DNA of 64,000 nt from Ktedonobacteria bacterium. GTDB lineage: Bacteria; Chloroflexota; Ktedonobacteria; Ktedonobacterales; JACDGC01. The translations under genes and the position numbers were made by a program. The stretch lies in contig DAIDGU010000023.1 in the NCBI GenBank assembly GCA_027459785.1, forward strand, positions 1-64,000, given 5' to 3'. Numbering within the stretch: the first letter of the stretch is position 1; the number at the start of each line of letters is the position of its first letter. The notes under the pieces were generated by a model. It was given only the letters and a program-made list of their open reading frames with translations. It searched no databases and had not been told where the DNA came from. Below are positions 17,367-20,616 of the stretch, in pieces.

Positions 17367-18575
17367 TTACGTGCGGTCGGGGTGCGCGCCGTGGCGGGCC
17401 AGCCATTTCGCGCGCTGCTCCTCGCGTAGCTTTTCGGAGGCGGGCTGGTAGCGTGCCAGGAAGTCGTCGTGCCAGGCGGCGAAGGTGCCAGCGAGGATCG
17501 CGGCGCGCATCGCCGTCATCAGGCGCAGCAGGAAGCGCAGGTTGTGGATGGAGGCCAGGCGGTAATAAAGCAATTCTTCAGCGCGGGCCAGGTGGTGGAG
17601 GTAGCCGGCGCTGAAGCGTTGGCATGTCCAGCAGTCACAGCCCGGCATCACCGGCTCCTGCACCGCCCCCCAGCGCGCCGCGCGGATGTTGACGCGCCCC
17701 GTCGGCGTATACAGGCCGCCGTTGCGCGCCACGCGCGTCGGCAGCACGCAATCGAAGAGATCGATGCCGCGCGCCACCCCCTCGACCAGATCTTCCGGCG
17801 ATCCCACACCCAGCAAGTGACGCGGGCGCGCGGGGTCCAGCGCGGGGACGGTCGCTTCCACCATCGACCACATCAGCGCCTTGGGTTCGCCGACGGAAAG
17901 ACCGCCGATGCTGAAGCCGTCGAAGGGGAGCGCGCTGATCGTCGCCGCGCTCCACGCGCGCAACTCGGCCAGCATGCCGCCCTGGGGGATGCCGAAAAGC
18001 GCCTGGTCGGGCCGGACTTTGGCCGCCAGCGCCCGCGCGGCCCAGCGGTGCGTGCGTTCCGTCGCGCGCTGCATCGTTTGGGCGTCGCATGGGTACGGCG
18101 GGCATTCGTCCAGCGGCAGGATGATGTCCGCGCCGAACTGCGCCTCGATCTGCATCACGCGCTCCGGCGTCAGCGCCACCTCGCGCCCGTCCAGGTGCGA
18201 GCGAAAGCGCACGCCGTCATCCGTCAGCGCCCGCAAGTGGCCCAGACTGAAGACCTGGAAGCCGCCGGAATCCGTCAGGATCGGCCCCTCCCAGCCCATG
18301 AAGCGGTGCAAGCCGCCGAACTCCGCGATCACCTCCGGCCCAGGCCGCAGCAACAGGTGATACGTATTGCTGAGGATGATCTGTGCGCCCAAGGTCGTCA
18401 GATCATCGGGAGCCAGTGCCTTCACGGTGGCCTGGGTGCCGACGGGCATGAACATCGGCGTGGCGATGGTGCCGTGCGGCGTCGTGAGCAATCCCGCGCG
18501 GGCGGCTCCGGCGCTGGCAGCGATGGTGAAATGGAGCGGGCGCAGGCCGGCGGCGGGTGTCGGTGTATCAGTCAT
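17367..18575 (-). CDS. tgt: Queuine tRNA-ribosyltransferase
   Basis: A 402-residue TIM-barrel enzyme that exchanges guanine 34 for preQ1 in tRNAs with GUN anticodons. Visible are MPVGTQATVKALAPDDL, the active-site Asp in DSGGFQVFSLG, the second catalytic Asp within DLFDCVLPTRVARNG, and the zinc site built from CDCWTCQRFSAGYLHHL (CxCxxC plus distal His). Length agrees with bacterial Tgt. ATG 18575 gives the family N-terminus; the upstream in-frame ATG 18599 is less likely. No queuosine synthesis gene (queC, D, E, F or queA) is next to it. Confidence 0.95.
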   Translation of the reverse strand: MTDTPTPAAGLRPLHFTIAASAGAARAGLLTTPHGTIATPMFMPVGTQATVKALAPDDLTTLGAQIILSNTYHLLLRPGPEVIAEFGGLHRFMGWEGPILTDSGGFQVFSLGHLRALTDDGVRFRSHLDGREVALTPERVMQIEAQFGADIILPLDECPPYPCDAQTMQRATERTHRWAARALAAKVRPDQALFGIPQGGMLAELRAWSAATISALPFDGFSIGGLSVGEPKALMWSMVEATVPALDPARPRHLLGVGSPEDLVEGVARGIDLFDCVLPTRVARNGGLYTPTGRVNIRAARWGAVQEPVMPGCDCWTCQRFSAGYLHHLARAEELLYYRLASIHNLRFLLRLMTAMRAAILAGTFAAWHDDFLARYQPASEKLREEQRAKWLARHGAHPDRT

Positions 18576-18759
18576 AGCACTGCTCAGTGTAGCACACATA
18601 TGGTTCAGCCCGTAAAATTTCCATCAAATCCCCCTACGTTTACCCCAAACACCTCTCGCACAACGACGCGAGGCATGGTATACCAAAGTTGTCGCACGCG
18701 CACAGCGCGAGCGCACCACACTGCTACAGATATCACGCTACAACCAGAGGTTCTTTCGC

Positions 18760-19977
18760 ATGCACACACCGACCGCGACATCCCCCCCCGCGCGCTTCGT
18801 CGCGGAGTTGCGCGCCAACTGGCACGCCGACCGCATTCCCGCATGGGTTCTTTTGCCTTTGCGCCTCTTTTTAAGCATCACCTTCATCTATGCGGGCCTC
18901 CAAAAATTGACCGATATACACTTTTGGCATCCCGGTACGCCGGATTATATTGGTCGCCAGATTTATGGTTTCGCCGCTGGCTCGCCGCTCCATAACTTCT
19001 TGCTCAGCGTGGCCGAACCACATGCCGTGCTGTTCGGCGCGCTGGTGGCTTATGGTGAACTGGCGGTCGGCCTGGGCGTGCTCCTGGGCGTGCTGATGCG
19101 CCCGGCGGCGTTTGGTGGCCTGCTGCTGAGCGTGCTATTTTTCCTTTCGGCAAGCTGGCGCGTCCACCCGTATTTCTATGGCGCGGATATCGTCTTCGCC
19201 TTCGCCTGGGTGCCGATTATCCTGGCGGGGCCGGCGCATGGCATCCTGCCGGCGGTCGATACGCGACTGGTGCCGTGGCTCTTGCCGCGCGTGCCGGCGG
19301 CGCAGCGCGAGCGCGTGGCGCACGTCTTGGCCGTCGTGCTGGGGATCGCGCCAGTGGAGGCACCGGCAGCCGCACCGACAGTCGCCGCACCGGCACCGGC
19401 TGGCGCGAAAGGCCAGCGCCCCGCCCCTCGCCCCAGCGCGCGGCAAGCACCACGCCGCCCGGTCCGCACCACCACCCGGCGCGACTTCATCTGGGGGACC
19501 GCCGCCGGAGCCGCCGGCATGCTGAGCCTGACCTGGCTGTGGAGCTTGCTGAATCCATCGTCCGCGGCCACTGTTAACAGCGCCGCGAACACAGGAAGCA
19601 CCGGCAGCACGACGACCAGCAGCGCGGCAGCGACGCCTGGCACGACGAGTGCGACGGGGACAGCAGAGACGATCGCGCAGGTCTCCGCCGTGCCGGTCAA
19701 CAGCGCCGCCACCTTCACCCTTCAGGCGAATGGCGATCCCGGCGTGCTGGTTCATCTCACCAACGGGAAGTTCGTCGCCTTCGATGCCACCTGCACCCAT
19801 CAGGGCTGCCCGGTGCAATACGATCCCAGTTCGCGGCTGTTGCTCTGCCCGTGCCACGGCGCGGCCTTCGATCCCAGCCAGAACGCCGCCGTGGTGCAAG
19901 GGCCAGCCTATCAGCCGCTAACGCCGGTCACGATCAGCATCAACCAACAAAGCGGCGCCATCACCACCCAGGACTAG
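18760..19977 (+). CDS. DoxX-like membrane domain fused through a twin-arginine segment to a Rieske [2Fe-2S] domain
   Basis: A 405-residue two-part protein. Residues about 30-165 form a four-helix DoxX/DoxD-like membrane domain (RLFLSITFIYAGLQKLTD; the family includes the small subunit of thiosulfate:quinone oxidoreductase). A Pro/Ala linker follows, then TTTRRDFIWGTAAGAAGML (R240-R241), a Tat-like signal with its hydrophobic stretch. The C-terminal Rieske domain has C345-T-H347 and C363-P-C365-H366 as cluster ligands, with C350 and C365 placed for the disulfide of high-potential Rieske proteins. AGAGG precedes the ATG. The domain order suggests a quinone-linked electron carrier whose Rieske head is outside the membrane. 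Confidence 0.87.
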   Translation: MHTPTATSPPARFVAELRANWHADRIPAWVLLPLRLFLSITFIYAGLQKLTDIHFWHPGTPDYIGRQIYGFAAGSPLHNFLLSVAEPHAVLFGALVAYGELAVGLGVLLGVLMRPAAFGGLLLSVLFFLSASWRVHPYFYGADIVFAFAWVPIILAGPAHGILPAVDTRLVPWLLPRVPAAQRERVAHVLAVVLGIAPVEAPAAAPTVAAPAPAGAKGQRPAPRPSARQAPRRPVRTTTRRDFIWGTAAGAAGMLSLTWLWSLLNPSSAATVNSAANTGSTGSTTTSSAAATPGTTSATGTAETIAQVSAVPVNSAATFTLQANGDPGVLVHLTNGKFVAFDATCTHQGCPVQYDPSSRLLLCPCHGAAFDPSQNAAVVQGPAYQPLTPVTISINQQSGAITTQD

Positions 19978-20058
19978 GGGACTTTTGGGCGGCGGGGGAG
20001 ACGGCCCGCGCCCGCCATGCGTTGTGATACCAGAAAGAACTACCAGAGGATACAACCG

Positions 20059-20616
20059 ATGCCCGCGATCCGCCTCGTTGAACTGCACCCGATCATCGTC
20101 CATTTCCCCATCGCGCTGTTGCTGACCGCCGTCGTAATGGATTTCGTCGCCGCCCTGACACGGCGCTGGAACATCGCCGATGTGGCTACCTGGCTGCTGC
20201 TCTTCGGTGTGATCGGCGCGTTGGCAGCGGGCCTAACCGGAACGATCAGCGAGCATCAGGCGCGGGGTGTCGCGGTGGGGAATCTGCTGGCCTTGCACCA
20301 ACGTTTCGCCTTCGCCGCCGGCTTCGCCTTCGCGCTCCTGTTGCTGGTACGGCTGATCTGGCTGGCACCGCGCATTCTGCTGGGGCTACGCAGTGTGGTG
20401 CCGGCGCTGGCCACGCCGCTCCAGCAGCGGCTGCGCGCTGCCGTGCCGGCGCTGTTCGCCGCGCCGCCCGCGCCGTGGCTGATCGCGCTCTATCTGCTCG
20501 GCAGCGTCGTGGCGGCGGTCTTGCTGGGGATCACCGGCTACCTGGGTGGCGCGCTGGTGTACGATCACGGCCTGGGAACGCCCGGCGCATTCCTGCACCT
20601 CAACGTTTGGCGTTAG
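20059..20616 (+). CDS. DUF2231-like four-helix membrane protein
   Basis: A 185-residue integral membrane protein starting VELHPIIVHFPIALLLTAVV, the histidine-bearing first helix typical of the DUF2231 family. A second conserved His is in LLALHQRFAFAAGF. Such proteins are often found with cytochromes or Rieske proteins, and this one follows the DoxX-Rieske gene by 81 bp with AGAGGA before ATG 20059, so the two may share a redox role, perhaps haem or quinone binding. This is context inference. No cofactor motif is definite. Confidence 0.78.
   Translation: MPAIRLVELHPIIVHFPIALLLTAVVMDFVAALTRRWNIADVATWLLLFGVIGALAAGLTGTISEHQARGVAVGNLLALHQRFAFAAGFAFALLLLVRLIWLAPRILLGLRSVVPALATPLQQRLRAAVPALFAAPPAPWLIALYLLGSVVAAVLLGITGYLGGALVYDHGLGTPGAFLHLNVWR

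What the first reader, a model, noticed from the sequence alone, without database searches (positions are those of the whole stretch)
18760..20616. DoxX membrane domain, Tat-like segment and Rieske head in one protein, followed by a DUF2231 gene
The twin-arginine segment lies in the middle of the protein, after four membrane helices, so the Rieske head must be exported as an internal domain. All four cluster ligands and the disulfide pair are kept. Together with the DUF2231 gene it may form a small quinone-linked electron transfer module.
Basis: partly seen in the sequence, partly recalled or inferred. Interest (0 to 1): 0.55.

Follow-up and report, generated by a model that had tools for sequence, protein, structure and literature searches.

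The report
Membrane-anchored Rieske protein with DoxX
One bacterial protein joins a four-helix membrane domain (DoxX) to an iron-sulfur electron-carrying head that is probably pushed outside the cell by a built-in export signal; the same fusion is found in many soil bacteria, often beside signalling genes, but what it reacts with is unknown.

Summary
Window 18760-19977 is one 405-aa ORF: DoxX/DoxD domain, basic linker, twin arginine (R240-R241), fifth helix, Rieske head with all four ligands and the cysteine pair. A DUF2231 gene follows (start more likely 20059 than 20017). It is not an artefact: both halves lie in one ORF in 24 of 41 related genomes, and in 76 of 79 loci of a public genome scan (Chloroflexota, Dormibacterota, Actinomycetota, one Acidobacteriota label). 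Ligands and cysteine pair are kept in 80 of 80 distinct fusions, the twin arginine in 77. It is not thiosulfate:quinone oxidoreductase (DoxA absent in 41 of 41 genomes) and not the bc-complex Rieske (the genome's only cytochrome b lies beside another Rieske). DUF2231 adjoins in only 10 of the 24 relatives. Its charge pattern predicts an orientation opposite to that of DUF2231 proteins fused to Rieske heads, which would put its conserved histidines on the exported head's side. A two-component system adjoins the fusion in 30 of 76 loci, against 4 of 143 control genes. Best reading: a Sec/Tat-inserted, quinol-linked, extracytoplasmic electron-transfer protein; donor and acceptor are inferred. By-product: Rieske heads of related type also sit on catalytically broken kinase-like proteins in Ktedonobacteraceae.

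The parts
18760..19977 (+). DoxX-Tat-Rieske fusion gene, 405 aa
18841..19227 (+). DoxX/DoxD four-helix domain (residues 28-156)
   Evidence: Pfam DoxD E 3.7e-14, DoxX E 1e-10; helices in the AlphaFold2 model
19477..19551 (+). twin arginine R240-R241 and fifth transmembrane helix (residues 240-264)
   Evidence: RR invariant in 23 aligned sequences, 77 of 80 distinct fusions (with the window's own added by eye); helix 240-264
19669..19974 (+). Rieske [2Fe-2S] head (residues 304-405)
   Evidence: Pfam Rieske E 3.7e-12; model pLDDT 85-98 in ten-residue blocks from residue 301; best structural match arsenite oxidase AioB, Z 16.1, rmsd 2.1, 106 residues
19792..19800 (+). first ligand pair C345-T-H347 (C350 of the cysteine pair follows)
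   Evidence: 80 of 80 distinct fusions
19846..19857 (+). second ligand pair C363-P-C365-H366, including C365 of the cysteine pair
   Evidence: 80 of 80 distinct fusions
20059..20616 (+). DUF2231 four-helix membrane protein, 185 aa from ATG 20059 (ORF open from 20017)
   Evidence: Pfam DUF2231 E 3.4e-20; adjacent in 10 of 24 one-ORF Ktedonobacterales fusion loci; model pLDDT 91; H10 and H80 in 36 of 36 aligned DUF2231 sequences

Best explanation
A polytopic Rieske electron carrier of the extracytoplasmic face. Step 1 (inferred from conserved sequence and from the precedent of Tooke et al. 2017): Sec inserts the four DoxX helices N-in; the Rieske head folds and receives its cluster in the cytoplasm; Tat recognises RR240-241 and pulls helix 5 and the folded head across. 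Step 2 (inferred): the DoxX domain, a relative of the quinone-linked DoxD, lets (mena)quinol be oxidised at the outer leaflet by the cluster, which acts as a one-electron acceptor with a potential expected below that of bc1. Step 3 (inferred, this lineage only): the adjacent DUF2231 protein sits with its conserved histidines on the same outer side and may bind haem b or quinone as a partner of the head. Step 4 (unknown): electrons pass to an extracytoplasmic acceptor that is not encoded next door. In many relatives a neighbouring two-component system probably controls the gene; the window's own locus has none adjacent.
For: One ORF with both halves in 24 of 41 related genomes and in 76 of 79 public loci. 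Ligands and cysteine pair 80 of 80, RR 77 of 80. In DoxX, D143 80 of 80, E100 79, K49 and R114 78. Linker before RR strongly basic; TatC present. Residues after CxCHG never combine Ser(+1) with Tyr(+3): A/F 37, S/F 26, A/Y 6, G/Y 5, G/F 4, unread 2, of 80; PMC3758308 (passages read) links that Ser/Tyr pair to the high potential of bc1 Rieske clusters. DUF2231 orientation by K+R count: the operon type (10 adjacent genes plus one non-adjacent close relative) N-out 11 of 11; the type fused to a Rieske head N-in 11 of 14, so in both cases the histidine side tends to match the Rieske side.
Against: No acceptor gene is next door. Quinone binding by DoxX and haem binding by DUF2231 are not shown; DUF2231's structural matches are only generic four-helix bundles (Foldseek best E 1.3; VIA Z 13.7 to designed bundles, b561 11.1). 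The window's own protein has no K/R in the 15 residues after helix 5, a feature that Tooke et al. found in dual Sec/Tat families. DUF2231 is not a general partner. Three of 80 distinct fusions lack RR.
Confidence: 0.42

Rival explanations
1. Redox sensing rather than respiration: the exported head reads quinone or oxidant state and the DoxX fusion signals to the two-component system next door, as an accessory sensor.
For: RR/HK ORF within 450 bp in 30 of 76 fusion loci against 4 of 143 control genes, in two arrangements: divergent (e.g. L060, L067, L093, L122) and overlapping the fusion's stop by 4 bases in 13 loci, labelled actinobacterial (e.g. L094, L113). Rieske heads of related type sit on kinase-like proteins.
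Against: Two-component genes beside enzymes usually just regulate them (RsrRS beside doxDA, PMC5093147). Many of the 30 loci are syntenic relatives, not independent cases. The window locus and 46 of the 76 loci lack the adjacent neighbour.
Confidence: 0.2
2. Envelope redox defence: the fusion delivers quinol electrons outside to repair or detoxify oxidised envelope components, with the two-component system inducing it under stress.
For: Two-component neighbours; in Ktedonobacteraceae relatives L055, L056 and L058 the locus holds flotillin-, NfeD- and PspA-like genes (names assigned by eye, not by a family scan). A mycobacterial DoxX in an oxidative-stress complex is recalled; one search gave a listing only.
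Against: No repair enzyme is adjacent in the window; no defence gene is common to the lineages.
Confidence: 0.18
3. A thiosulfate- or sulfur-compound:quinone oxidoreductase in which a Rieske head has replaced DoxA.
For: The domain scores best as DoxD; a two-component system regulates tetH-doxDA in Acidithiobacillus caldus (PMC5093147, abstract and passages).
Against: NCBIfam's TQO DoxD equivalog scores 22.3 bits against a cut-off of 300. DoxA is absent from 41 of 41 genomes. No sulfur-oxidation gene was recognised beside it, but only the window fusion and the two genes after it were family-scanned in the window.
Confidence: 0.1
4. DoxX is only a membrane anchor for the Rieske head and has no redox role.
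For: Other Rieske heads in the same order use a single helix after a kinase-like domain, so the anchor is exchangeable.
Against: DoxX polar residues D143, E100, K49 and R114 are kept in 78 to 80 of 80 distinct fusions, more than an anchor needs.
Confidence: 0.1

Closest known systems
Actinobacterial QcrA Rieske subunits and other dual Sec/Tat-inserted membrane proteins (Tooke et al. 2017, PMC5449189, passages read)
   Same: Helices inserted by Sec, then RR before the last helix and a C-terminal cofactor domain. That paper also mentions a five-helix Rieske homologue of Kitasatospora setae (KSE_30950) with RR at helix 5.
   Different: QcrA has three helices and sits in a bc complex; the paper never mentions DoxX (0 occurrences). 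Whether KSE_30950 is a DoxX fusion could not be checked here.
Thiosulfate:quinone oxidoreductase DoxDA
   Same: DoxD-type four-helix domain; a DoxD domain fused to a second domain is known (DoxDA in Acidithiobacillus, PMC5093147).
   Different: The second domain here is Rieske, not DoxA; DoxA is absent from the genome and its relatives.
Arsenite oxidase small subunit AioB
   Same: Closest solved Rieske fold (8cgs_B, E 4e-11; 1g8j_B, Z 16.1) and a Tat-type export signal (recalled).
   Different: AioB has no DoxX; the NCBIfam equivalog is missed (51.9 against 95.65 bits).
DUF2231-Rieske one-piece proteins
   Same: The same two families, here in one chain; one occurs in this genome (L004 817-1806).
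   Different: Their head lacks the cysteine pair; predicted orientation is mostly opposite.

Membership tests
Thiosulfate:quinone oxidoreductase (DoxDA) | DoxD-type membrane domain | tested here: met
   Pfam DoxD 53.4 bits, cut-off 22.7
Thiosulfate:quinone oxidoreductase (DoxDA) | NCBIfam TQO DoxD equivalog | tested here: not met
   22.3 bits, cut-off 300
Thiosulfate:quinone oxidoreductase (DoxDA) | DoxA subunit or domain | tested here: not met
   PF07680 in 0 of 41 genomes, own included; the control genome Bacteroides ihuae rings
Thiosulfate:quinone oxidoreductase (DoxDA) | oxidises thiosulfate | not testable with these tools
   needs assay
Rieske [2Fe-2S] proteins | CxH...CxxH ligands | tested here: met
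   80 of 80 distinct fusions
Rieske [2Fe-2S] proteins | cysteine pair of the bc1/b6f type | tested here: met
   80 of 80 distinct fusions
bc1/b6f Rieske subunit | family model of a bc-type subunit | tested here: not met
   QcrA 54.4 against 275 bits, PetC 42.3 against 250, Rieske_proteo 27.3 against 97.4
bc1/b6f Rieske subunit | gene beside cytochrome b | tested here: not met
   the only PF00033 match is on C4 (12056-12610), about 1.1 kb from another Rieske at C4 10787-10972
Dual Sec/Tat-inserted membrane proteins | even number of helices, then RR, then one final helix before a cofactor domain | tested here: met
Dual Sec/Tat-inserted membrane proteins | last helix of low hydrophobicity | tested here: inconclusive
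   Kyte-Doolittle mean 1.26 against 1.83-2.04 for the DoxX helices in the window; family mean 1.89 against 1.56-2.18; the Gapp server was not available
Dual Sec/Tat-inserted membrane proteins | positive charges after the last helix | tested here: not met
   0 K/R in 15 residues in the window protein; at least 1 in 71 of 80 distinct fusions (at least L080 and L082 were anchored at a wrong RR)
Dual Sec/Tat-inserted membrane proteins | Tat dependence | not testable with these tools
   needs a tatC mutant
DUF2231 (PF09990) | Pfam gathering score | tested here: met
   73 bits, cut-off 26.4
Haem b cytochromes (for DUF2231) | conserved histidines able to ligate haem | tested here: inconclusive
   H10 and H80 in 36 of 36; H15 in 11 of 11 and H170 in 10 of 11 of the operon type; fold matches generic

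The most novel reading that the evidence does not exclude
This Rieske head type is an extracytoplasmic redox-sensing module used by several signalling routes: DoxX-Rieske proteins reporting quinone or oxidant state to a neighbouring two-component system, and a family of catalytically dead kinase-like proteins (pseudokinase, twin arginine, helix, Rieske) passing the state of an exported iron-sulfur cluster into the cytoplasm.
Probability: 0.15. Interest if true: 0.85.

Novelty: new variant of a known kind. Interest (0 to 1): 0.5.

Why it matters
It is a widespread, apparently undescribed domain architecture that joins two families with unclear physiology (DoxX, DUF2231) to a well understood electron carrier. 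That gives a spectroscopic handle (Rieske EPR) on what DoxX and DUF2231 do. It also adds a conserved natural candidate for Sec-to-Tat handover inside one protein, and links a Rieske head to signalling genes.

Tried and rejected
Assembly or local-fusion artefact: rejected by conservation in independent genomes. TQO: rejected as membership, kept as a weak 'works like'. Canonical bc-complex Rieske: rejected. DUF2231 as universal partner: rejected. Haem cytochrome fold for DUF2231: Foldseek gave nothing with E below 0.001, and VIA-align 2 gave a mix of designed bundles, receptor domains, b561, STEAP and cytochrome b chains, so no verdict. Plasmid search gave one Rieske-only match, in a Rubrobacter marinus plasmid. 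Promoter/terminator scan was uninformative (3 promoter-like sites against 0.6 expected, none just upstream of either gene; no terminator-like site on the + strand between the two genes). The Rieske tree has too few columns to resolve the origin of the fusion; the DoxX label needs 6 changes on it.

Papers. PMC5449189: passages only. PMC5093147: abstract and passages. PMC8551704: passages. PMC3758308: abstract and passages. Listings only: (apart from the four papers just named). One search found no paper. 'Apparently undescribed' rests on (DUF2231: 1 paper; DoxX with Rieske: 6 papers, listing only; no paper; 2 papers), in an open-licence library only; I did not open the six.

Weak points of my counts: one search's script returned 76 of 80 RR; I added the window's own (L005), where it picked another hydrophobic stretch. 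The 80 'distinct' ORFs are distinct in their last 200 residues and include near-copies (L022/L023/L025). The two-component count uses ORFs matched by phmmer at E 1e-18; one query labelled HK was in fact a response regulator, so the RR/HK labels are unreliable, though 'either' is sound. The three groups were defined by hand; the operon group includes L159, which is not adjacent to a fusion. The control genes come from the same loci as the fusions.

Full report
WHAT IS THERE. Window 18760-19977 (+) is a single 405-aa ORF. Pfam gives DoxD (53.4 bits), DoxX (42.6) and Rieske (46.4), all above their cut-offs. The AlphaFold2 model from 23 aligned sequences (mean pLDDT 78.6; head blocks 85-98 from residue 301) shows helices 28-51, 89-109, 113-131 and 137-156, a low-confidence linker, helix 240-264, then the beta-rich head 304-403. 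R240-R241 stand at the start of helix 5. The head's best structural match is arsenite oxidase AioB (Z 16.1, rmsd 2.1, 106 residues); the DoxX part matches NACHO/TMEM35A (Z 13.3, rmsd 3.2, 127 residues). The next gene, 20059-20616, is DUF2231. Upstream on the other strand, 17367-18599 looks like queuine tRNA-ribosyltransferase (named by eye). Downstream, an ORF to 21812 has no Pfam family above cut-off.

IS IT REAL AND HOW WIDE. Of 41 genomes (own plus 40 relatives) 24 hold the two halves in one ORF (in G002 it is cut by the contig end); one more (G003) has the halves at two contig ends; in 16 none was found. A scan of public genomes found 158 relatives and kept 79 loci; 76 of 79 hold both halves in one ORF, the exceptions being two contig-end pieces from one genome (L116, L121) and L137, where the halves lie in two frames. 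Record titles: Ktedonobacteria and other Chloroflexota, Dormibacterota, Acidimicrobiaceae, Thermoleophilaceae, Solirubrobacterales, Frankiaceae, Kineosporiaceae, one 'Acidobacteria', and two 'Proteobacteria' labels on contigs of the same lengths as those of relatives G010 and G001. In 301 Chloroflexota genomes 37 match the fusion profile at E <= 1e-45; some of these are one-half matches. Among 80 ORFs distinct in their last 200 residues, ligands and cysteine pair are kept in 80 and RR in 77 (exceptions L080, L082, L122). DoxX residues D143, E100, K49 and R114 are kept in 80, 79, 78 and 78.

TOPOLOGY. Four helices put the linker back on the side of the N-terminus. In 23 aligned sequences the linker averages 11.0 K+R and 4.7 D+E, so it is most likely cytoplasmic, and helix 5 then carries the head outside. 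Tooke et al. 2017 (PMC5449189, passages) describe the same Sec-to-Tat handover for actinobacterial Rieske proteins and for two five-helix families, and mention a five-helix Rieske homologue in Kitasatospora setae. The window protein's helix 5 is weakly hydrophobic (1.26 against 1.83-2.04), but no K/R follows it within 15 residues, unlike the published families. TatC is present.

PARTNERS. DUF2231 directly follows the fusion in 10 of the 24 relatives (G000, G002, G004, G005, G008, G012, G018, G020, G022, G028) and in none of the loci L082-L137. In the Pfam search, 39 of 41 genomes hold DUF2231 proteins. Among DUF2231 ORFs in the fetched loci, 15 entries carry a C-terminal Rieske motif, all without the cysteine pair; two of the entries, L004 and L156, are the same own-genome gene. 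Splitting 36 DUF2231 sequences by context, K+R counts predict N-out for 11 of 11 of the operon type, N-in for 9 of 11 free ones (1 N-out, 1 tie) and N-in for 11 of 14 fused ones. H10 and H80 are kept in 36 of 36; H15 is special to the operon type (11 of 11), and H170 nearly so (10 of 11, against 1 of 25 others). By model helices 6-34, 37-68, 71-101 and 139-169 these histidines lie toward the membrane side of the two ends. So in the operon type they would face outside with the exported head, and in most fused proteins inside with their own head. This is an inference from charges and predicted helices, but it was not built in.

A response regulator or histidine kinase ORF lies within 450 bp of the fusion in 30 of 76 loci, against 4 of 143 other genes in the same loci. 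Arrangements differ: divergent in Ktedonobacterales and in L093 or L122, and overlapping the fusion's stop by 4 bases in 13 loci. Pfam confirms response regulator and kinase in L047 and L094. The window locus has no such neighbour. In L087 a gene 8 bp downstream weakly resembles DUF4405, below its cut-off.

WHAT IT IS NOT. DoxA is absent from 41 of 41 genomes and the TQO equivalog model is missed by far. The only cytochrome b of the genome lies on contig 4, about 1.1 kb from another Rieske, so the fusion is not the bc-complex subunit by location. It also misses the bc-type models.

MECHANISM. My reading is a Sec/Tat-inserted extracytoplasmic Rieske carrier fed by quinol through DoxX. Shown by sequence: domains, conservation, neighbours. 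Inferred: export, quinol as donor, the DUF2231 role, regulation by the two-component system. Unknown: acceptor. The residues after CxCHG never combine the Ser and Tyr of bc1 (0 of the 78 that could be read), so a potential below bc1's is expected (PMC3758308, passages). The TQO-like rival gains from RsrRS regulating tetH-doxDA in A. caldus (PMC5093147) but loses on DoxA.

A SIDE FINDING. The long Rieske ORFs in Ktedonobacteraceae relatives that I examined, 25 of 25, are kinase-like domain, basic cluster with RR, helix, Rieske; these 25 were chosen as long open frames, not as a full census. Pfam confirms both domains in 9 of 9 scanned. Beside a normal kinase from L047 as reference, the HRD Asp and DFG Asp are replaced in all 23 with that region present, and no VAIK Lys was aligned in any of those with residues there: they look like pseudokinases. 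On the Rieske tree the five such heads that were included fall with the DoxX heads, separated from the DUF2231-fused heads by a branch of support 100/100 (few columns, many forks unresolved).

VERDICT. Observation confirmed; interpretation partly supported. New variant of a known kind: a Rieske protein with an unusual polytopic anchor, conserved across phyla, with unknown redox partners.

Noticed in passing
L033 739-2250; L035-L038; L170-L189 (Ktedonobacteraceae relatives): Kinase-like domain, basic cluster with RR, helix and Rieske head in one protein, 25 of 25 ORFs examined; catalytic HRD Asp and DFG Asp replaced in all 23 with that region present, so probably pseudokinases; cysteine pair kept only in L033, L035 and L170.
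   Followed up: partly
L004 817-1806 (own genome, contig 46) and further proteins from relatives: DUF2231 fused to a Rieske head without the cysteine pair, with predicted orientation mostly opposite to the window's DUF2231.
   Followed up: partly
L039 5035-5895 (own genome, contig 73) and L040 3118-4011 (same genus): Paralogous DoxX protein with a basic tail but no Rieske head, downstream of what looks like a peptide-binding lipoprotein (named by eye).
   Followed up: no
L124 2963-3418: A separate Rieske protein with RR and a lipobox-like LAAC start lies 75 bp upstream of a DoxX-Rieske fusion: two Rieske heads side by side.
   Followed up: no
L055, L056, L058: In three Ktedonobacteraceae relatives the fusion sits between a penicillin-acylase-like gene and HTH, NfeD-, flotillin- and PspA-like genes (named by eye), which suggests an envelope-stress context.
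   Followed up: no
L087 3672-4406: Membrane protein with weak DUF4405 similarity (20.8 bits, cut-off 26.7) 8 bp after the fusion: perhaps another b-type partner in Dormibacterota.
   Followed up: no
L083, L088, L094, L099, L101, L113, L115, L119, L127, L131, L136: In these loci, mostly labelled actinobacterial, cytochrome c oxidase subunit I- or II-like genes (named by eye) lie about 3-5 kb upstream of the fusion on the other strand.
   Followed up: no
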